Source of the DNA: a virus
Length of the DNA stretch: 33,538 nucleotides
Strand: one strand, 5' to 3'
IMG/VR virus record: IMGVR_UViG_3300046328_000149
Coordinates: 1 to 33,538 of that record
Part shown: positions 2,032 to 31,191 of the stretch, piece after piece
Position numbering within the stretch: position 1 is the stretch's first letter
Layout: every line of letters starts with the position of its first letter
Notes under the pieces: generated by a model
Database searches by the model: none
What the model was told of the DNA's origin: nothing
Seen by the model: only the letters and a program-made list of their open reading frames with translations
Position numbers and translations under genes: made by a program

Positions 2032-5000
2032 TTATGGATTTAAATACTGTCTGTCAACTATTTGTTGGATTGGTATTGTGGCATCACTTGTTGCATTGTA
2101 ATTTTTTAATCTTAGATTTTGATAAGCTAATGATAATATACTAATATCAATTAAGCTACCACTAGCGACTTCAAAACTAAATTCACCACTAGTAATTGTT
2201 TCTTGACCAGCTAATTCAGTTGTTGTTGATGCACTAAATACCCTAACCTCTGTTGGATTAACCAATCCAGTAAGTGTTATTGTTAATTGTGGATCTAATT
2301 GATATTGATATGCTCTAGATGTATTATCACTATATGTTGGAATATATAATGCGGATATTGCATTAGTATTTCCAGATATTGTGGTAATTCTAATTTTCAT
2401 TTTAGCACCAGACGCACCAATATTGGATTCGAATGGTAAACGATTAAATCTTAATAATCCAGATACCACACCAATATTTGGTTTATTAACAACAAATGTT
2501 GTTGTATTTGTAATTCCAGTAACATATGCATTTGGTGCAATGTTTGATCCAAATACATAATCACCAACTGTAATACCTGATGTTGACCGAACTATTACGT
2601 TTGTTGAACCATTTGATCCAGTATTAGCACTTACATTATAATATAAATTATAAAAAGAGCTAAAACCATTACCATCATTTCTATCTAATGCATATAATAC
2701 ATGATGATTATTTAATAAACCACCAATAATAAATGGTTCAGCAATCGGAAATGATTTATGTCCAAGTATATATTCTGGTGATGTAAATGTAATTTGTTGA
2801 CTAACGGTGGGCATAAATAACGAACCAGCCGATGTAAATGCTGGTGTACCATTATCAATTGTATATTGATCAACTGTTTCAGTTGTTGATTCATTCATAA
2901 CAAGACCAATTCTACCATTATGTGGTATAAATGATAATGTACCACTAGTAGCACCAGCATTTAAACAAGTAAATGTAAATGTTTCACCACTTAATACTGT
3001 TAATGTTTTATTACCTAATATAATTGTAGATTCAGATGATGATGTTATTACATTTATTAAATCACCAGTAACCAAACCATGTTTGGGTGATGTAATAGTT
3101 GCGGTTGTTGTAACTCTTGACCAAGTAACAGTTGTTGCTGATAGTGTTGGTGGCGCAATATAATAATCAAGCCAGTGTGTACCATAAACAGATGTTTGTG
3201 CAGCTAATGAATATCTACCACCAATACCATTTTGTGATCCATTTAATTGTGGTGTTAATGGTACGTTAATATTATAATCACCAAAGACATTTTTAAGTTC
3301 GATATTTTTACTAGAGTTATCTGCTGTATATATGTTTGTTCTTGTATGTGGTGTATAACATCTTTTAAGTTCAACAGTATTAGCTGCTGCACCAGCAGCT
3401 AATGCAAACAATAATGCTGACATTGTTGGATAATATGATAAACTACCATTAATTGCACCACCATTTGTCACTGCAAATGTAAATATATTATTTGTTGGTG
3501 CAGATGCAATAGTTTTAGCACCAACTGCAATCGCTGATACGTCAGTGGTGTTGGTTACATATATAATATCGTTAACTTTTAAATTGTGTGATGTTGCTGA
3601 TATTGTTCCAACAGTTGTAACTCTTGACCACGCAACATTATCAATTCTTGGCGCACCTAAATCCAAAGGTTGACTATATGTTCCTAAATTTCTTAATTTA
3701 ATATTTGTACAACCAGCAGCACCTATGTTTAATATACCACTATATGGTTGTGTTAATGTTAATCCACTAAATGAAATACCATCCATTTTAATATCAACAC
3801 AACTACTCGCTAAATCAAATATGTACATTGGATTGGCTGTTGCAGTTGTTGTTGCTGGATGATCATAATAAATTGTATTATTAAAATCAACATTTGTACA
3901 TGTTGTCATAAAAGCACGACCATCACCCAATACTGTATTATTAAAAACTGTATTATTAACCCTTGTTAATGTCATAGCACCAGTTGTAGCATTACCTCTA
4001 GCGACCATTCCTAAAAATTCTGTATTATTAAATGTAAAACCATCCAAATCAGAAAATGTACCAATATATCTACCAGATCCAGCTAATGTTGCTGATGTAA
4101 ATCTACTATTAGAAATTGTTCCACCAGCAAAACATGTTGCCATTGATAGTCCAAATTGTGCGTTTGCAGCTTCTTGTCCAACACCAATATTATTCCAAGT
4201 TAATGGTGCTGCAATTTCTGATACTAATAATTGTGTTGCAATACTAGTATTTGAAATATTAACAGAATATGGCTGTGCAAATGATGGATACCAGTTTAAT
4301 GCAGCTTTATCTATTTCAATTACACCACCACCAGTAGTTAAAAAATCATATCTAGTCGCTAATGTAACACTAGGTAATACATTTATATTTTTAAATCCAA
4401 TAACACAATTTTGTGTTATAATATTTGGTATTCTAATTCTTAAACCTGTTGGTGGTATATAACCACCAGTACTGTTCGTACCATCGTGTCCAAATCTTAA
4501 ATGGCCACCATTGGCAGTTATCCAACAAAATTTACCACGAAGTCTATCTGTCGCAATATTTGCGACAAGTGCTGTTAATGTACCAGCACATGGATAAAAT
4601 TCATAACTACCTGATGCAACATCTGTTTCAACCCAAACACCTGGTAAATACATTAAACTACCACTTGTTGGTAATTGATATATTGTTGCTCTAGTTCCAT
4701 TTGTTGTACCGACACTAAACCATTCACCACGCATTCTAAACGTATTTAAACGGTTTACTGTTGCAACACCAAATTCATTACCGACAATTTCAATCCAACC
4801 AGCAGTATCACCACTTATGGCACTAGCTGTAATATTGGATAATGCACCAATCGTAAAAGGTACACCATTCCATTCTTTAATTTTTATTAATCCACTTGCT
4901 GGTATTGTTGCACCACTTACTGTAGCACCTGATGCAATATTACTCCATACACCAATCAATTTACCAGTTGCTAAATTATTTGTTCCACCAGATATAATAG

Positions 5001-8676: not shown

Positions 8677-9449
8677 TGGATAAGGTAAAATATTTGGAAT
8701 TGCAAGATAAAATGAAGAATGATAAATCATTTTTCAAAAAATATAATAAATTAAAAGATGATTTAGAGAAACATCTAGGTACATCAATTGAAATACAAAT
8801 GTCATATACACCAGAAGATCAAAAAGGTGATGAAATGATGCCATCTGAAATGGAATCTAATGAATTTTGGAATCAATATAGTGTAGCATTAAAAGAATTA
8901 TTGGAACATAGAATTGATGTTGGTGATAAAACGATTCACTTATCATCTGATATTGATGATTTATCGCTATCAGAAATGGATACAAAAATAAGAATAATTG
9001 AAAAGTTATCTCCAGAATATGAAGAAGATAAAATATCACCATTAAATATTGTTGTAACATCTTATGGTGGTGATGCTTATACAACACTTGGAATTGTTGA
9101 TCTGTTGAATGAAAAACCATATCCAATACATGGTACAGGTCGTGGACAGATAATGTCTGGTGGTGCGTTTATTTTGATTGCATGTGATTATAGAAAAATG
9201 TCCAAGAACTCATGGATGATGATTCACCAAACCAATGGAGGATTTTTTGGAGCATTTAAAGATATGGCCATCAATTATGAACATTTGAAGAAATTAAACA
9301 ATTGTGTTTTAGATTTATTGGTTTCAAAATCAAATAAATCTAAAGTATGGTGGGAAAATAAGTTGAAAGAAGGTGATTATTATTTAAGTGCTGATGAAGC
9401 AAAAGAACTTGAATTAATTGACGAAGTGATTGATTATGCAACTAAATAA
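8676..9449 (+). CDS. ClpP-like serine protease
   Basis: 257 residues. The core (about 85-250) has the ClpP/crotonase fold signature: IVVTSYGGDAYTTLGIVDLL, then GQIMSGGAF with the nucleophile Ser161, then MMIHQTNGG with His184. The C-terminal GDYYLSADEAKELELIDE matches the ClpP end. The Asp of the triad is not at the obvious ClpP position; Asp234 in GDYYLS is the nearest candidate. The N-terminal ~85 residues are an extra charged helical region absent from bacterial ClpP. In phages, ClpP-type proteases commonly process capsid proteins, but this one sits with PhoH and enzymes rather than head genes, so it could act on host or phage regulators. It is immediately downstream of PhoH and overlaps the next gene by 14 nt. 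Confidence 0.82.
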   Translation: MDKVKYLELQDKMKNDKSFFKKYNKLKDDLEKHLGTSIEIQMSYTPEDQKGDEMMPSEMESNEFWNQYSVALKELLEHRIDVGDKTIHLSSDIDDLSLSEMDTKIRIIEKLSPEYEEDKISPLNIVVTSYGGDAYTTLGIVDLLNEKPYPIHGTGRGQIMSGGAFILIACDYRKMSKNSWMMIHQTNGGFFGAFKDMAINYEHLKKLNNCVLDLLVSKSNKSKVWWENKLKEGDYYLSADEAKELELIDEVIDYATK

Positions 9450-17515: not shown

Positions 17516-18403
17516 ATGTCGCACGATAAAAAATATTTACAGCAAAGCACTAATGTATTTAGTAAGAACGAATCAAAAATTGAAAAAGTTGATATTTTTT
17601 CACAAGGTGTTGTTGTTGATATAACTGATGAATTTGATGGGATGCGAATTAGGGTTAGAATTCCAAATATTGATAATAAGATTGAGAATGCTGATTTACC
17701 ATATGTATTTCCGATGCTTCCAAAATTCTTCTATATTTTACCAAAAATTGGTGAATCTGTAAATGTATTTATTCCAAATCCAAATAAACCTTATAATAAT
17801 AGATATTGGATGGGATCAATAATTTCACAATTTCAAACATTATCAAATGACCCATATTATTTTAGTGCATTATCATTAACAGATAATAGAATAAGTAATC
17901 CGAAAGAAGGTGTAAAGAAAATACCATCCGCCAAAGGTTTATATCCAACAGATCCAAATATTATTGCAATATTGGGGAGAGATAACACTGATATGGTCTT
18001 AAAGCCTAGAGATTTGACGTTGAGGGCTGGCAAACACGATATTGATAACAATCTATCACTTAATACAAAAAATCCAGCATACCTCAAATTAAGGATGTCT
18101 GATAATGGCCAAGATACATATTCAACATTATATGGTGATAATGTATATCTACTATCACATAAAGGTGTTAATAGAGTTAAATCAATACTTGAATCTGATG
18201 ATGATTTTCTTAAACTTGTTGAAAAAACACATCCATTAACAAAAGGTGATAAAGTTGTTGAATTCTTTACATTATTAAAAAATGCTGTATTAACACATGT
18301 TCATGGTTATGCTGGCAAAAATGCTGATGATAGTAATTTTATTACAAAACTAAAAGAATTCGATATTAATAGTATTCTATCTAATAATATTAGAATTAAC
18401 TAA
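17516..18403 (+). CDS. gp5-like OB-fold baseplate hub/spike protein
   Basis: 295 residues. Residues about 25-110 read as the OB-fold found at the N-terminus of T4 gp5 and VgrG-type spikes: VDIFSQGVVVDITDEFDGMR, IRVRIPNID, then LPYVFPMLPKFFYILPKIGE and SVNVFIPN. The conserved PK-GE-V and strand pattern is good. The middle contains PTDPNIIAILGRDNTDMVLK and YSTLYGDNVYLLSHKG; the C-terminus has AVLTHVHGYAG. T4 gp5 also has a lysozyme domain and a beta-helix; neither is visible here, so this is a reduced hub/spike form. It would plug the tail tube at the baseplate. The last gene of the operon, it overlaps the convergent gene at 18396 by 8 nt. Confidence 0.7.
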   Translation: MSHDKKYLQQSTNVFSKNESKIEKVDIFSQGVVVDITDEFDGMRIRVRIPNIDNKIENADLPYVFPMLPKFFYILPKIGESVNVFIPNPNKPYNNRYWMGSIISQFQTLSNDPYYFSALSLTDNRISNPKEGVKKIPSAKGLYPTDPNIIAILGRDNTDMVLKPRDLTLRAGKHDIDNNLSLNTKNPAYLKLRMSDNGQDTYSTLYGDNVYLLSHKGVNRVKSILESDDDFLKLVEKTHPLTKGDKVVEFFTLLKNAVLTHVHGYAGKNADDSNFITKLKEFDINSILSNNIRIN

Positions 18404-18698
18404 ATTCATCAATAGTTAATAATATCGATAATCCTATATATATTATATAATAAAAAATGGATAATTGGATTAGATTGGATATAATAAAAAAGTAAATAAA
18501 GTTATAAAACCAAAATCCGAAACAAATCAAACATCCGCCCAACACTTTAAATAGTTTTGGATATTTATCCTCCAATCCTAAAATCAATTTATAATACCAA
18601 TCCAATACATTTCCTTCATTAAAAGAAAAATCAATTAACTTGATAAATCCAAAAGAGGATATTGATAATATAATTAAAATAAATATTGAATTAATCAC
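18396..18698 (-). CDS. Small membrane protein with C-x-x-C-x-x-F-W motif
   Basis: 100 residues starting with GTG at 18698. The N-terminus is a hydrophobic helix (INSIFILIILSISSFGFIKL), and the C-terminal half has a GGCLICFGFWFYNF motif followed by further hydrophobic sequence (IYFFIISNLIQLSIFYYIIY), giving three likely membrane segments. C-x-x-C-x-x-F-W in a short membrane protein is a pattern I know from phages of Bacteroidetes and others, without a settled function. Its GTG overlaps the stop of a 19-codon ORF just upstream. It is the only gene on this strand between the gp5-like gene and TnpB. Confidence 0.55.
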   Translation of the reverse strand: MINSIFILIILSISSFGFIKLIDFSFNEGNVLDWYYKLILGLEDKYPKLFKVLGGCLICFGFWFYNFIYFFIISNLIQLSIFYYIIYIGLSILLTIDEFS

Positions 18699-18754
18699 TT
18701 AATCCTTGGTCTTTTTTTTCCACCACACTTACAGTATGAAATATCAAATATCAT
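18695..18754 (-). CDS. 19-residue Cys-containing micro-ORF
   Basis: ATG at 18754 leads through 19 codons (MIFDISYCKCGGKKRPRIK) to a TGA that overlaps the GTG of the membrane protein gene. C-x-C-G-G-K-K looks like half of a zinc ribbon. It starts 15 nt after the TnpB stop, so it may instead be part of the TnpB guide-RNA region or a gene remnant. Confidence 0.2.
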   Translation of the reverse strand: MIFDISYCKCGGKKRPRIK

Positions 18755-18768
18755 TTTATAATCCTTAT

Positions 18769-20136
18769 TTACTTATGTAATTTTCGCATTACTGGATATA
18801 CTGCTATACCCTCTGTCCCATTAGCAAATGCATTTGGGAATACTTTTCTTATGCTATTATAACTTCCGTTAACGTCAGCATTAATACGCTTCTTCCTACC
18901 TTTTAATTTATAACTGCCACGATGTTCTCTATAACCACTAAATATATATTTCTTTTTATTACCTTTTGTATCGATTACATCTATAATAGTGGATTCATTA
19001 TCTATATCAATTAACTCAGTTATTTCATTAATTGAATTAGGTTTTTGATATACAGGCATTTCATCTAAGTCTAAAAAACTAGCTCTAGATGTATAAGACT
19101 CTTCTGTTAATATAACATCAATACCTATCATCTTACCTTTATATTGTAACTGATGAATTAAATCATTAAATGGTATATCAACAAAATTTTGATTATTAAC
19201 TTTAGACATGTTAATATTATTCTTCCAACCATCATTTTTACCAATTACTATTGTTCCTATATCATTTCTGATACAATCATCGATAATATGTTTACTAGCT
19301 TTATGGATGTAATTATCAACTTTACAATTACGTTTATGCGTTAATTGTTTAATTTTATTAGATGTTTTACCTTGTTTGTTTTGTGCTAATTGTTCTTGTA
19401 ATATAGAGCGTTGTTTATTATAGTATTGATTATATGATTTTAGCGGTCTTCCGTTAATAATTTGTGGGATATAACCCACTTTATTTGATGTTAAAGTAGC
19501 TAAATTGTTTACACCTAAATCAATACCTATAATATTGTTTTTATTTAAATTTAAATTTGTTTCTTGTTTTTCATATATAATATTTATTATGTATTTATTG
19601 TTTGCAGAAGGAATAATTCTACATAATTTTAATTTAACACCTTCTTTATTATGATTAATAAATGGTATTTTAACATTTGTACCTGATAATTTAATAAAAC
19701 CAGACCTCAATTCCTTAACAGATATAGCACCAAGTTCATATTCGGCAACAAATCTACCCTTTGTTTTAGGTAGATATTTTGGAATATTGGGTTTATTTTT
19801 ATGATTTTCTGGGTTTCCTTTCCAATCTTTAATAGACGCAAAGAAGGAACGCCAGTTCCAATCCAAAGCCATTAAAGTATGGTTTGATACTTTAATTGGT
19901 AGAGCATAAAAATCAATATTTTTCACATCTGTAAATAACCTATTCATATATGTAAAGCCCAAATATATCGCATTATCTAAAACACCCTCTTCTTTTAGTT
20001 TACGTGTTTTTAAAAATTCTTGTCTTATAATATAATTAGCAGCGTTATATAAATTTTTAGATAAAAAACATATATTATCAATCTCTTTATATAATGGATT
20101 TGATTTGTTTATAATATGTTTCTCAGTTAGTATCAT
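18769..20136 (-). CDS. tnpB: TnpB RNA-guided nuclease (IS200/IS605 OrfB), lone, rearranged-site type
   Basis: 455 residues, full length. RuvC-I is IIGIDLGVNNLATL with Asp206. The usual RuvC-II Glu position (IVIED in ordinary TnpB) reads IVIGKNDGWK, with Gly299. A second candidate Glu is in LTEESYTSRASFLD (345-346). RuvC-III is RINADVNGSYNSIRKV with Asp421. This EESYTS subgroup is one I know as having a rearranged catalytic Glu. The C-x-x-C zinc finger of ordinary TnpB is missing (SFLDLDEMP and FSGYREHRGSYK in its place). TnpB cuts DNA guided by an RNA that normally overlaps the gene's 3' end, which would put the guide near 18690-18770. No TnpA is visible. It sits between a membrane protein gene and the divergent nuclease gene at 20213. 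It appears intact rather than dead. Confidence 0.88.
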   Translation of the reverse strand: MILTEKHIINKSNPLYKEIDNICFLSKNLYNAANYIIRQEFLKTRKLKEEGVLDNAIYLGFTYMNRLFTDVKNIDFYALPIKVSNHTLMALDWNWRSFFASIKDWKGNPENHKNKPNIPKYLPKTKGRFVAEYELGAISVKELRSGFIKLSGTNVKIPFINHNKEGVKLKLCRIIPSANNKYIINIIYEKQETNLNLNKNNIIGIDLGVNNLATLTSNKVGYIPQIINGRPLKSYNQYYNKQRSILQEQLAQNKQGKTSNKIKQLTHKRNCKVDNYIHKASKHIIDDCIRNDIGTIVIGKNDGWKNNINMSKVNNQNFVDIPFNDLIHQLQYKGKMIGIDVILTEESYTSRASFLDLDEMPVYQKPNSINEITELIDIDNESTIIDVIDTKGNKKKYIFSGYREHRGSYKLKGRKKRINADVNGSYNSIRKVFPNAFANGTEGIAVYPVMRKLHK

Positions 20137-20150
20137 TATATATAAATAGT
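20137..20150 (-). promoter_or_regulatory. Late-promoter-like site abutting the TnpB start
   Basis: On the minus strand ACTATTTATATATA runs directly into the ATG of tnpB. If used as a promoter, transcription would begin within the gene's first codons, so it may be displaced, or a transcript from it may start translation at a later codon. The sequence is otherwise identical to the sites before late operons. Confidence 0.3.
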
Positions 20151-20184
20151 ATTAAATATATTTTTAATTTAGAAAAAATAATAT

Positions 20185-20192
20185 TATATTTG
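20185..20192 (+). promoter_or_regulatory. Bacteroidetes-type -7 element before the nuclease gene
   Basis: TATATTTG fits TAnnTTTG, the -7 consensus of Bacteroidetes housekeeping promoters, and ends 20 nt before the ATG at 20213. No convincing -33 TTTG is seen. Confidence 0.35.
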
Positions 20193-20212
20193 TTTAGTAT
20201 ATTAAACAATAA

Positions 20213-20977
20213 ATGATTGACTTTATAAAACTCTTTTCCACATTTAATAATGTAAAGTATTATGATGTGCCTCACAAGTACTATGTTAATGATGTGCAGT
20301 TCACATCTGTAACTACATTATTGCATAAATTCACCAATCCATTTGATGAAGATTATTGGAGTGAATATAAAGCAAAAGAATATGGAAAGACCAAACAAGA
20401 GGTATTGGATATGTGGAAGCTTGAAAATAAAATATCCACAGTTAAGGGTTCTCTTGTTCATAAATACGCTGAAGACTATATCGCAAATAAAGTATTCGAT
20501 TATCCACAAGAAACAGTTATAAAGGAATTTGGATCTGATATAATAAAAGGTTCTTATGACGTATCAATCAAACAATTTGAATCTTTTTATAATGCAGCCT
20601 TTGGAAAACTAATACCAATCAAATCTGAATTTATTGTATATGATTTGGAATATAAAATATCAGGAATGCTTGATCAGTTATTTTATAATGTTAAAATGAA
20701 TTGCTTGGATATATATGATTGGAAAACAAACAAAGAAATAAAAACTGTAAATCAGTATCAAAAAATGTTATTGCCAGTGAATCATTTAGATGATTGTAAT
20801 TATTGGGAATATTCATTACAGTTAAATCTATATAAATGGATTATTGAAAAGAACACTGGTATTAAGATTGGGAATATGTGTGTAATATGGCTAAACCAAA
20901 ACAATTCGGATTTTCAACTATTTAAAATAAGCGATATGCAAAACGAAATACAAGCAATATTAAAATATTTGAAATGA
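20213..20977 (+). CDS. PD-(D/E)XK-family nuclease (RecB-like exonuclease)
   Basis: 254 residues. The order of motifs is that of the RecB/AddB-like PD-(D/E)XK fold: KGSLVHKYAEDYI (about 78-90; helix with conserved His and Glu), a strand with KSEFIVYDLEYKISGMLDQL giving the metal-binding G-x-x-D, then IYDWKTNKE giving D-x-K (the PD...DxK core), and YSLQLNLYKWIIE, the Q-x-x-x-Y helix. The protein is therefore likely an active Mg-dependent nuclease, perhaps acting on DNA ends in recombination or host DNA degradation. It begins a plus-strand unit with a TAnnTTTG-type -7 element; its last codons overlap the next ATG (ATGA). Confidence 0.82.
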   Translation: MIDFIKLFSTFNNVKYYDVPHKYYVNDVQFTSVTTLLHKFTNPFDEDYWSEYKAKEYGKTKQEVLDMWKLENKISTVKGSLVHKYAEDYIANKVFDYPQETVIKEFGSDIIKGSYDVSIKQFESFYNAAFGKLIPIKSEFIVYDLEYKISGMLDQLFYNVKMNCLDIYDWKTNKEIKTVNQYQKMLLPVNHLDDCNYWEYSLQLNLYKWIIEKNTGIKIGNMCVIWLNQNNSDFQLFKISDMQNEIQAILKYLK

Positions 20978-22802: not shown

Positions 22803-24662
22803 TTATTGAATATATTCAAAAACCTCAGAACCACAATCATATATTCCATCCATTTGGTTTTCATCACTAATATAGTAAACTATATTATTATAAATCATTT
22901 TTAATAGCGCATCGTTTATTCTTCTTGCTCTGTGATAGTAATCAACTTTATTGATAAAGTATTTGTTTGGTTTTGTAATGCTTATAGATTTGAATTTATT
23001 ATCTAAGTAACCTAATCCATTTAATCTTATATTGGAAATATATTTTAATCTATTAACATCGTGTGTTTCTAATATATGATTGATTATAAGATTGAATCCA
23101 TTGATAATATTATAATTTAATTTTGTAATCTCATTCACTATTGTAAAATTATTATTAGAATCAACCCTGATACATACCATATATATTATATCATCGCCAT
23201 TACTTAAAACAATATCAAAATCTGATTTAATATAATCATATAATGAATTTTCTTTAATAAAGTTAATTCTAACATCGACATCTATATTAATGTTTATATC
23301 TAAGTCTTGGGGATATTGGATTAGTTTGGATTTACCTAATGTTCTATCAATAAATGATTTTAAAACTCTACCATTATATTCAACCTCATCTTCAAATATA
23401 TGAATCATTCTAATTCCCTTATCATGAGCCAGTTTTGTCTTCATAATATGATAATCAGTTTCTTTACCACCAAATCCAGTAGAATGAAAATAATTACCGT
23501 CCATTTCAAAACCAATCTGATATTCTGATAAAAATATATCAATTTCGTAAGGTCTAATCAAAGATCTATTATTGGTCAACATCTCACCATCATATATTGA
23601 TTTAATATAGTCTTGAGCGAAAAGATTTATTGATGAATATTTTGAACTTGGAAAACATTTTCTGCAAATGGGTTTTTCGTTATTTTTTATAAGTGTTGTA
23701 TGCATAATGTTATTACACTTTTTGCATTGTATTTTTAAATAACGTGTTTTACTAAAAGTTATAAATTTATTACTCTCTAACCACGTAAATCCAAATCTAT
23801 CTAATCGTTCATCAATAACTTTGGATTGGGATTTGTTCTTTATGATTGTAAATTCTTCACTATTTTGATACCATGTACCACCATATTTTGTTAAATGTGC
23901 AGATTCTGCTTTTTTGTGATTCTCTTTTATGGCAAGTACACCAGTAACACCATACTTTTCCATAAATGTATTTTTATATCTTTCTTTATACTCTGGTAAC
24001 CTTAAATGATAATCTCCATATCTTTCAATAATAGTTTCCATAAACTTTGGTCTATTATTATAGTTCTCATCACCATATTTAGCTAGACACGTTATCTTTC
24101 TTTTGTTTATATCTCGATAATTCTCATCACCATATTTCTCAAATTTAGTTTGCTTGGCTTTAGAAACCATTTGTTGGATTTGTTCAGGAGTTTTATTATT
24201 ATGTGTCTCCCTATTTTTTATAAAGAATTCTGGCACATGCATAATGCTTTCAAAACCATATCTTTCTAATAATGTTTTCTTTTGTTTTATAATTTTATTA
24301 GTGTCAATAGTTTCTTTATTATTTAAATAATGTGTTCGTCTACATTCTGGTGAGCAATATATTCTTTCATATTTAATTCTTATCTTAAATTCGGTTGTAC
24401 ATATTGGGCATGATCTAATTTCCCACGCATCTTCTATAATTTTACCTGTTAAATTATTAGTTCGTAATTTACTATTACACACTTTTGAACATGTTTTAGT
24501 GCTTGTTTTTCTTTTTTCATAAAAAATATTATCACATATTACACAAGTCTTTTTATTTTGTTCTTGAAAAAAATTGTATTTACATTCTTTACTACAAAAA
24601 CTAACATTATCGGATTTATATTGTTTTTTACAATGTTTACAAGTTTTAATTGGTTTTTTCAT
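22803..24662 (-). CDS. Free-standing homing endonuclease, EDxHD (Vsr-like) type with zinc fingers
   Basis: 619 residues. Three N-terminal treble-clef-like zinc fingers have C-x2-C ... C-x3-C spacing (Cys8/11/23/27, 40/43/58/62, 85/88/103/107). A fourth pair is near residues 313-336. Between them are repeated [KR]YG units (about 134, 177, 196, 214, 237, 260), seen in phage homing endonucleases as DNA-reading repeats. The nuclease core is PYEIDIFLSEYQIGFEMDGN with YFHS and then IRMIHIFEDE (about 371-426), fitting the EDxHD family typified by I-Bth0305I. It probably cuts a related phage's tube-sheath junction to promote its own spread. It lies between sheath and tube genes in the same orientation, with its own promoter-like site 16 nt upstream. 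Confidence 0.85.
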   Translation of the reverse strand: MKKPIKTCKHCKKQYKSDNVSFCSKECKYNFFQEQNKKTCVICDNIFYEKRKTSTKTCSKVCNSKLRTNNLTGKIIEDAWEIRSCPICTTEFKIRIKYERIYCSPECRRTHYLNNKETIDTNKIIKQKKTLLERYGFESIMHVPEFFIKNRETHNNKTPEQIQQMVSKAKQTKFEKYGDENYRDINKRKITCLAKYGDENYNNRPKFMETIIERYGDYHLRLPEYKERYKNTFMEKYGVTGVLAIKENHKKAESAHLTKYGGTWYQNSEEFTIIKNKSQSKVIDERLDRFGFTWLESNKFITFSKTRYLKIQCKKCNNIMHTTLIKNNEKPICRKCFPSSKYSSINLFAQDYIKSIYDGEMLTNNRSLIRPYEIDIFLSEYQIGFEMDGNYFHSTGFGGKETDYHIMKTKLAHDKGIRMIHIFEDEVEYNGRVLKSFIDRTLGKSKLIQYPQDLDININIDVDVRINFIKENSLYDYIKSDFDIVLSNGDDIIYMVCIRVDSNNNFTIVNEITKLNYNIINGFNLIINHILETHDVNRLKYISNIRLNGLGYLDNKFKSISITKPNKYFINKVDYYHRARRINDALLKMIYNNIVYYISDENQMDGIYDCGSEVFEYIQ

Positions 24663-29571: not shown

Positions 29572-29973
29572 ATGCTTTGCAACTACTTAAATGATATTTA
29601 TGATAAACATATCCACATTGGATTGGATAATGTAGAACGTTCCATATTCTCTCGAAGAATTATGAACGACACACTTAATTTACTATATTCAATAGATACT
29701 GAAATAACTAATATGAGTGGTTCAATATTCTTTATAAAAAATAATAAAATATTATTTGAACTATGTAATAGTGATAAAAAACGATTTATAATTTGTCATT
29801 ATAATAAAACTTGGCGTGTTTTATATAAAAAACATCATCTAAAATATGATGATGTTAAATATTTATTAAGTATGGCTGTCGAAAATTGTTTAGAATTAGG
29901 ATTAATAGAAGTACAACCATCCAATAAACATAATCAACATAGATGGAATCTATTTGAACGAATCTGGTTATAA
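29572..29973 (+). CDS. C-motif family protein, long form (paralogue of 30766)
   Basis: 133 residues, 4 nt after the virion gene. It begins MLCNYLNDIYDKHIHIGLDN with the motif C-x-Y-[LI]-x-D-I at residues 3-9. It is a full-length paralogue of the 30766 product: shared segments are the first ten residues MLCNYLNDIY, LFEL, FI-C-[HN]-Y-[NA]-K-[TV]-W, KYDD and VEN-x-L-x-LG. These define a second, C-terminal half of the long form absent from the micro-proteins. Function is unknown. The stop is 4 nt before a 30-bp perfect palindrome that probably terminates transcription. Confidence 0.68.
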   Translation: MLCNYLNDIYDKHIHIGLDNVERSIFSRRIMNDTLNLLYSIDTEITNMSGSIFFIKNNKILFELCNSDKKRFIICHYNKTWRVLYKKHHLKYDDVKYLLSMAVENCLELGLIEVQPSNKHNQHRWNLFERIWL

Positions 29974-30736: not shown

Positions 30737-30744
30737 TATCTTTG
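30737..30744 (+). promoter_or_regulatory. Bacteroidetes-type -7 element before the 30766 gene
   Basis: TATCTTTG fits TAnnTTTG and lies 21 nt upstream of the ATG at 30766. No clear -33 TTTG is seen. Confidence 0.35.
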
Positions 30745-30765
30745 TTGATAAAAATAACCAAAACT

Positions 30766-31191
30766 ATGCTCTGCAACTATTTAAACGATATTTATCTCAA
30801 TCATATATATAAGTCATTATCTAATGATGAATATGTTTATTCACAAGAAGTAGAAGAAATCTTTTTGGATTTGTGGTTCTCCTGTAATAACGCCAAAACA
30901 TATCTAGAACATCCAGATAGTACTTTTTATTGTATAAATGAAGATATATTATTTGAATTGTATATTAAACAGGATTTAAAAAAACAATTTATATACTGCA
31001 ATTATGCTAAGGTTTGGTCTGTTTTCGAATCTAAATATTATATGAAATATGATGATATTCAACAGCTTATAAAGAACGTGGTGGAGAATACGCTCAAATT
31101 AGGGTCAACAACACCACGTGATTTAAATTGGAAAGTATTAAAGATGAAAAATACGCTCAAATTAGGGTCAATAACACCCCTTTATTTTTGA
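30766..31191 (+). CDS. C-motif family protein, long form with C-terminal repeat expansion
   Basis: 141 residues from the ATG at 30766, chosen because the product then starts MLCNYLNDIY exactly like the 29572 protein; a TTG at 30742 is the only alternative. Paralogous segments include LFEL, FIYCNYAKVW, KYDDIQQLIK and VENTLKLG. After VENTLKLGSTTP the sequence repeats as KNTLKLGSITP, because the DNA carries a 63-bp in-frame tandem duplication with a third decayed copy beyond the stop. Function unknown. It is preceded by a -7 element of host type rather than the late-promoter motif. Confidence 0.65.
   Translation: MLCNYLNDIYLNHIYKSLSNDEYVYSQEVEEIFLDLWFSCNNAKTYLEHPDSTFYCINEDILFELYIKQDLKKQFIYCNYAKVWSVFESKYYMKYDDIQQLIKNVVENTLKLGSTTPRDLNWKVLKMKNTLKLGSITPLYF

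What the first reader, a model, noticed from the sequence alone, without database searches (positions are those of the whole stretch)
18769..20136. Intact lone TnpB with a moved catalytic glutamate and no zinc finger
Seen: Asp206 (GIDLG) and Asp421 (NADVNGS) are present, the usual RuvC-II Glu is replaced (IVIGKN), and Glu345/346 lie in EESYTS. The C-x-x-C zinc finger is missing. Known: some TnpB and Fanzor nucleases have a rearranged catalytic Glu at an alternative position. No TnpA and no obvious IS ends were seen. Inference: a domesticated RNA-guided nuclease that may protect its locus, cut competitors, or home.
Basis: partly seen in the sequence, partly recalled or inferred. Interest (0 to 1): 0.62.

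Follow-up and report, generated by a model that had tools for sequence, protein, structure and literature searches.

The report
TnpA-less phage TnpB RNA-guided nuclease
A large bacterial virus carries an apparently working RNA-guided DNA-cutting gene of an already known rearranged type, whose own guide RNA can be read from its tail end, and it most likely survives by cutting copies of its landing site that lack it.

Summary
The 455-aa ORF at 18769-20136(-) is an intact TnpB with D206, E346 and D421, a Gly where the usual Glu sits, no zinc finger and no TnpA in the window. These are not oddities of this copy. All 86 viral and all 75 cellular sequences examined have E346 and lack the canonical Glu, and no cellular one has paired CxxC. 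Published TnpB surveys already list RuvC-II-rearranged clades, one member of which cuts DNA. The window copy is sister to an IS607 TnpB that still has its serine recombinase. It is absent from 61 syntenic relatives, so it is probably a recent insertion, not a domesticated gene. New here is a covariation-supported guide RNA: a hairpin inside the end of the gene pairs by pseudoknot with bases just before the guide. This held in two sets (30/74 vs 8.4 expected; 30/55 vs 5.2). It places the guide at about 18730-18711(-). The probable function is selfish retention or homing by cutting empty sites; Staphylococcus phages with a related TnpB have siblings with matching empty targets. Cleavage, guide RNA and this copy's TAM remain untested. 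New member of a known kind, modest interest.

The parts
18769..20136 (-). tnpB, 455 aa, RuvC D206 / E346 / D421, canonical RuvC-II Glu replaced by G299, no zinc finger
18794..18819 (-). omega-RNA scaffold motif and hairpin inside the 3' end of tnpB: GGGACAGA-GGGTA-TAGCAGTA-TATCC (5-bp stem 18811-18807 / 18798-18794, 8-nt loop 18806-18799)
   Evidence: motif conserved also in another reading frame in relatives; stem arms covary
18799..18803 (-). 5' strand of the pseudoknot, CAGTA (last five loop bases)
18732..18736 (-). 3' strand of the pseudoknot, TACTG, end of the scaffold (one conserved T at 18731 follows)
   Evidence: boundary supported by L119/L120/L121 and by the Nodularia and Staphylococcus occupied/empty pairs
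18711..18730 (-). predicted 20-nt guide AAGTGTGGTGGAAAAAAAAG (could start one base earlier, at T18731)
   Evidence: inferred from the scaffold boundary
20137..20185 (-). region holding the left end and tnpB promoter; exact left end and TAM not determined
   Evidence: inference only
18396..18698 (-). 100-aa small membrane-like ORF directly downstream of the predicted guide; no family match
17516..18403 (+). left neighbour: baseplate hub/lysozyme-like gene
20213..20977 (+). right neighbour: exonuclease gene; in 61 relatives it follows the hub gene after 25-448 nt with no TnpB between

Best explanation
This is an IS607-derived TnpB of the RuvC-II-rearranged class that has lost (or never brought) its TnpA and sits as a selfish insertion between two genes of a large phage. 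Its transcript carries an omega-RNA whose 3' part is a hairpin inside the end of the ORF plus a pseudoknot to the bases just before the guide; the guide is copied from the flank at the landing site. TnpB with this guide should cut copies of the site that lack the element (TAM next to the guide sequence) and leave the occupied copy alone because the insert separates TAM from target; repair or selection then favours the occupied copy, as in homing. Shown by sequence: intact protein and triad, clade membership, fold, omega-RNA covariation, absence of the insertion in relatives, absence of TnpA, matching empty targets in siblings of a relative's phage. Inferred: expression, cleavage, TAM, homing during coinfection, mobilisation in trans.
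For: Family and fold; AF2 pLDDT 89, pTM 0.84, ISDra2 TnpB Z 20.0, ISFba1 TnpB Z 19.7, AsCas12f Z 20.5. Active site: D206/E346/D421 kept in 86/86 of the viral alignment and in 74-75 of 75 cellular relatives found with patterns that do not include the E346 region. Omega-RNA: perfect 5-bp pseudoknot followed by T in 30/74 viral loci against 8.4 when pairings are shuffled (max 17 of 2000), and 30/55 against 5.2 (max 14) in the separate cellular set, over many base combinations; hairpin 4.24 of 5 pairs against 3.40 shuffled (max 3.68). Window has the stem, CAGTA/TACTG and T. IS607 origin: sister L092 with adjacent serine recombinase, support 100/89; TnpA adjacent in 24/86. Insertion: absent in 61 relatives. 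Empty-site logic: Staphylococcus phages Quidividi and BE04 occupied, 18 sibling records empty; of three empty sites read, two match the sequence after the scaffold exactly and one has a single mismatch; Nodularia homology resumes at the scaffold/guide boundary. Literature: one RII-r5 ortholog cleaves guided dsDNA (PMC10278001); TnpB gene drive in plasmids (PMC11870625).
Against: No near-identical phage with an empty site was found for the window, so its left end and TAM are unknown and target cutting cannot be judged. That E346 serves as the catalytic Glu rests on conservation; distances in the model were not measured. The published active RII-r5 ortholog was not compared with this clade. The ancestral hub-exonuclease gap of this phage may already have held the small ORF at 18396-18698. 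Absence of TnpA is only shown for a 33.5-kb fragment.
Confidence: 0.7

Rival explanations
1. Domesticated phage nuclease: the phage keeps it to cut competing phages or host elements with a fixed guide, and mobility is over.
For: No TnpA in the record; many phage copies (62/86) are without adjacent TnpA; ORF and omega-RNA are intact.
Against: Absent at the locus in 61 relatives; the family is sporadic in related phages (3/43); near-identical TnpA-less copies L119-L121 sit at different places with different guides, which is mobility and not fixation; the guide 20-mer has one exact match in IMG/VR, in a contig of no evident kinship.
Confidence: 0.12
2. Non-autonomous IS607 copy moved in trans by a serine recombinase elsewhere in the phage or host; TnpB only prevents loss of the element after excision (peel-and-paste retention), and there is no homing by repair.
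For: Closest relatives carry IS607 TnpA; L119-L121 show new sites without TnpA.
Against: No TnpA within the record; ends for TnpA recognition not identified. It is not exclusive of the best explanation.
Confidence: 0.35
3. Catalytically dead, TldR-like RNA-guided repressor.
For: Canonical RuvC-II Glu is lost; phage-borne TldRs exist (PMC13418256).
Against: D206, E346 and D421 are kept in nearly all of 161 sequences; a rearranged-Glu ortholog is active (PMC10278001).
Confidence: 0.04
4. Decaying relic.
For: No TnpA, unclear ends.
Against: Full-length ORF with all invariant residues, pLDDT 89 model, intact pseudoknot.
Confidence: 0.05

Closest known systems
TnpB clades with rearranged RuvC-II (RII-r3, RII-r5) of Nety et al. 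2023 (PMC10278001)
   Same: Missing canonical RuvC-II Glu; omega-RNA at the 3' end of the gene; one RII-r5 ortholog shown to cut guided dsDNA.
IS607 TnpB-TnpA elements (e.g. ISFba1, PMC11061315)
   Same: TnpB fold (Z 19.7 to 8iaz); sister L092 has the IS607 serine recombinase directly upstream; pseudoknotted guide RNA.
   Different: No TnpA here; RAGATH-18 RNA not found; ISFba1 has the triad D194/E290/D371 and a large reRNA downstream of the gene.
Fanzor2 / pro-Fanzor (E-alt) nucleases (PMC10711439)
   Same: Glu in the alternative place, six residues before the first zinc-finger position.
   Different: RuvC-I is DLG, not DPG; no CxxC zinc finger; phage-borne, not eukaryotic or cyanobacterial.
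Free-standing phage homing endonucleases (DUF7487 / phrog_3339 gene at 22803-24662 in this same window)
   Same: Single nuclease gene in an intergenic gap of the phage structural region, sporadic among relatives.
   Different: Protein-defined instead of RNA-defined target.
TnpB gene drive of IS200/605 in plasmids (PMC11870625)
   Same: Guide records the insertion site and element-free copies are cut.
   Different: Plasmids and IS200/605 elements; here a phage and an IS607-derived TnpA-less copy, not tested by experiment.

Membership tests
TnpB (RNA-guided endonuclease) | Family profile and TnpB/Cas12f fold | tested here: met
   NF040570 163 bits, cut-off 100; 8h1j Z 20.0, 8iaz Z 19.7
TnpB (RNA-guided endonuclease) | RuvC acidic triad present | tested here: met
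   D206, D421 and rearranged E346 conserved
TnpB (RNA-guided endonuclease) | Omega-RNA at the 3' end of the gene with a sharp scaffold/guide boundary | tested here: met
   hairpin and pseudoknot covariation in two sets, boundary from copies with different flanks; RNA itself not observed
TnpB (RNA-guided endonuclease) | Guided dsDNA cleavage | not testable with these tools
   needs bench work
RuvC-II-rearranged TnpB class | Canonical RuvC-II Glu lost, Glu conserved at another place | tested here: met
   G299 86/86 and 75/75; E346 86/86 and 75/75
RuvC-II-rearranged TnpB class | Placement in a published sub-clade (RII-r3 or RII-r5) | not tested
   reference sequences not held
Fanzor / pro-Fanzor | DPG in RuvC-I, E-alt six residues before a CxxC zinc finger | tested here: not met
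   DLG; no CxxC at all; only the E-alt spacing fits
Complete IS607 element | Adjacent serine-recombinase TnpA | tested here: not met
Complete IS607 element | Recognisable element ends | tested here: inconclusive
   right end placed at 18731/18732; left end not determined
IS200/IS605 element | Y1 (HUH) TnpA | tested here: not met
TldR (nuclease-dead TnpB) | RuvC catalytic residues lost | tested here: not met
   triad kept
Type V CRISPR effector (Cas12f) | Adjacent CRISPR array | tested here: not met
   no array-like repeats (whole window; 18300-20400)

The most novel reading that the evidence does not exclude
TnpA-less TnpBs of this clade act in phages as free-standing, RNA-programmed homing endonucleases: during coinfection they cut the empty site of a sibling phage and are copied in by repair, changing guide with each new site, thus filling the niche of protein homing endonucleases such as the one in the same window.
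Probability: 0.3. Interest if true: 0.6.

Novelty: new member of a known kind. Interest (0 to 1): 0.36.

Why it matters
It turns a vague 'odd TnpB' into a precise, testable object: exact active-site Glu (E346), scaffold pseudoknot and guide coordinates. It also shows that occupied and empty sibling phages described from isolates (Staphylococcus phages Quidividi and BE04 against BE25, SEP1 and others) would let one test whether phage TnpBs home. If they do, RNA-guided and protein-guided homing share the same niche in phages.

Tried and rejected
DNA relatives of the window in the phage collection: none. Hub protein relatives by tblastn or pattern: none; solved through the tail tube alignment. 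Rfam, including RAGATH-18, in the TnpB region: no match above threshold. Predicted empty junction of L119 in IMG/VR: not found. Guide 17-mer in IMG/VR: 9 contigs, one with all 20 nt (L182), flanks unrelated, taken as chance because the stretch is A-rich and codes a CGGK zinc-ribbon-like string elsewhere. CRISPR array: none. A zinc-ribbon gene interrupted by the insertion (KCGGKKRPRIK after the scaffold): no matching N-terminal half on the other flank, dropped. The conservation of EESYTS in the viral set is partly circular because that string was one of the scan patterns; the cellular set removes this.

Full report
WHAT IS THERE. The ORF at 18769-20136 on the minus strand is open for 455 codons, has a strong TnpB profile match (NCBIfam guided_TnpB 163 bits, cut-off 100) and an AlphaFold2 model of high confidence (pLDDT 89, pTM 0.84). 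That model aligns with AsCas12f (Z 20.5), ISDra2 TnpB (Z 20.0, 349 residues, rmsd 4.9), the IS607 TnpB ISFba1 (Z 19.7) and mimivirus Fanzor2 (Z 17.1). The record is a 33.5-kb virus fragment with tail tube, tail sheath, hub and exonuclease genes of a large myovirus-like phage. Its relatives include contigs of 300-370 kb.

THE MOVED GLUTAMATE. In Cas12f alignments the canonical RuvC-II Glu lines up with G299. Among 86 aligned TnpBs (the window, its viral relatives and five phage or earlier records, some of them duplicates), D206, G299, N301, E346 and D421 are invariant, while E345 is kept in 75. One of the viral scan patterns contained EESYTS, so I repeated the test on 75 cellular relatives found with three patterns from other parts of the protein. 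There E346, G299 and N301 are 75/75, D206 and D421 each 74/75, E345 only 65/75, and no protein has a paired CxxC. E346 lies seven positions before residue 353, where the first zinc-finger Cys would be, which is the E-alt spacing described for Fanzors (PMC10711439). In the model E346 follows strand 340-344; the canonical Glu position ends strand 293-299; distances were not measured. Rearranged RuvC-II clades and one active RII-r5 member are published (PMC10278001). The protein feature is therefore real, clade-wide and already known in kind.

THE GUIDE RNA. The last 75 nt of the relatives' ORFs carry the string GATAGAGG in 71 of 73 non-redundant loci (6 of 8 letters or better; shuffled mean 22.7, max 35). 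In eight of them the string is in a different reading frame, so that GIEG becomes DRG, NRG or the like (a ninth minor-frame hit, L004, is a mis-registered match). This points to selection on RNA, not protein. The string is followed by a 5-bp stem with a 7-8-nt loop (4.24 of 5 pairs against 3.40 when 3' arms are dealt anew, maximum 3.68 in 2000). The last five loop bases pair with five bases lying about 10 to 60 nt after the stop codon, usually followed by T. A perfect match followed by T is found in 30 of 74 viral loci against 8.4 by shuffling (max 17), with combinations such as CAGTA/TACTG, TAGTT/AACTA, GAGTA/TACTC, CTGCT/AGCAG, CTGTT/AACAG and CCGTT/AACGG. In the separate cellular set it is 30 of 55 against 5.2 (max 14), with further combinations GGTTA/TAACC, GGCTA/TAGCC, CGTTA/TAACG and CAGTC/GACTG. 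The shuffles keep base composition but not relatedness, so the many different pair types, and not the ratio alone, carry the argument. The window has GGGTA-TAGCAGTA-TATCC (18811-18794) and TACTG at 18736-18732 followed by T. Copies L119, L120 and L121, 94.6-99.2% identical, diverge right after this point, so the guide starts at T18731 or A18730: AAGTGTGGTGGAAAAAAAAG (18730-18711, minus). Pseudoknots in TnpB guide RNAs are known from ISFba1 (PMC11061315), so the principle is not new. This clade's version was not found in the held papers or in Rfam.

HOW IT GOT THERE. The tail-tube alignment brought in 80 related loci. In all 61 that hold both hub and exonuclease, these genes are 25-448 nt apart (median 53) and no TnpB lies between. 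Of 43 related phage records only three have this TnpB family, each with an adjacent IS607 serine recombinase. In the TnpB tree the window is sister to L092 (support 100/89), which has an IS607 TnpA directly upstream; TnpA is adjacent in 24 of 86 loci, scattered over the tree. The window itself has neither IS607 TnpA nor Y1 TnpA. This is best read as repeated loss of TnpA from IS607 elements. L119-L121 show that TnpA-less copies still reach new sites; joining the flanks of L119 and L120 gives continuous reading frames and suggests a GTATT TAM for that trio.

WHAT IT PROBABLY DOES. TnpB with a guide taken from the flank cuts the unoccupied site. Two cases with known empty siblings fit this. Quidividi and BE04 carry the element where 18 sibling records (16 distinct genomes) are empty. 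The sequence after the AACTG scaffold end, AATAATGTTGTATCAAG, is found intact behind GGTGGAAA in the empty sites of BE25 and SEP1, and with one mismatch in phiIPLA-C1C; the run of A at the junction leaves the exact boundary open by a few bases. In Nodularia phage kac68, homology with kac65 and 2AV2 resumes at the scaffold/guide boundary, although there the guide and the siblings' sequence differ at several bases. Plasmid gene drive by TnpB is shown by others (PMC11870625). In the window this remains inference: no near sibling is available, the left end and TAM are unknown, and no activity was measured.

CONTEXT. The same region is a hot spot for protein homing endonucleases. The window has a DUF7487/phrog_3339 gene between tube and sheath, and relatives carry such genes in the sheath-tube and tube-exonuclease gaps. 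That the TnpB sits in the same kind of niche supports, but does not prove, a homing role.

VERDICT. Observation confirmed; the 'domesticated' reading is not supported. It is a new member of a known class, of modest interest. The useful additions are the resolved E346, the omega-RNA with its predicted guide, and ready-made occupied/empty phage pairs for a homing test.

Noticed in passing
window 22803-24662 (-): 619-aa DUF7487 / homing-endonuclease-like gene inserted between tail tube and tail sheath genes; related phages have relatives of it in other gaps of the same region (e.g. L018, L023, L088 with two or three copies).
   Followed up: partly
window 29572-29973 and 30742-31191 (+): Two paralogous small ORFs of unknown function (43% identical over 114 aa) that share the stretch MLCNYLNDIY.
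   Followed up: partly
L119, L120, L121: Near-identical TnpA-less tnpB copies at three different sites, two of them inside reading frames that join when the flanks are put together; shared 5' flank GTATT suggests the TAM.
   Followed up: partly
L006 around 3690-3760 (Nodularia phage kac68): tnpB inserted at the 3' end of the terminase large subunit gene, overlapping it; the region differs from kac65/2AV2 by replacement of about 200 nt, not by a clean insertion.
   Followed up: no
L094 (1843-2430 minus): IS607 TnpA in opposite orientation about 570 nt upstream of tnpB, unlike the usual head-to-tail order.
   Followed up: no
L182 (IMGVR_UViG_3300008221_000024): Exact 20-nt match to the window's predicted guide in a contig with no evident kinship; probably chance (A-rich).
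   Followed up: partly
window 9343-9362 (+): 17/20 match to the predicted guide inside a ClpP-like gene of the same phage; none expected in shuffles; not interpreted.
   Followed up: no
L060 11189-11566 and L061 3464-3811: A second, diverged tail-tube-like gene (about 31% identity) between the hub gene and the next structural gene in some related phages.
   Followed up: no
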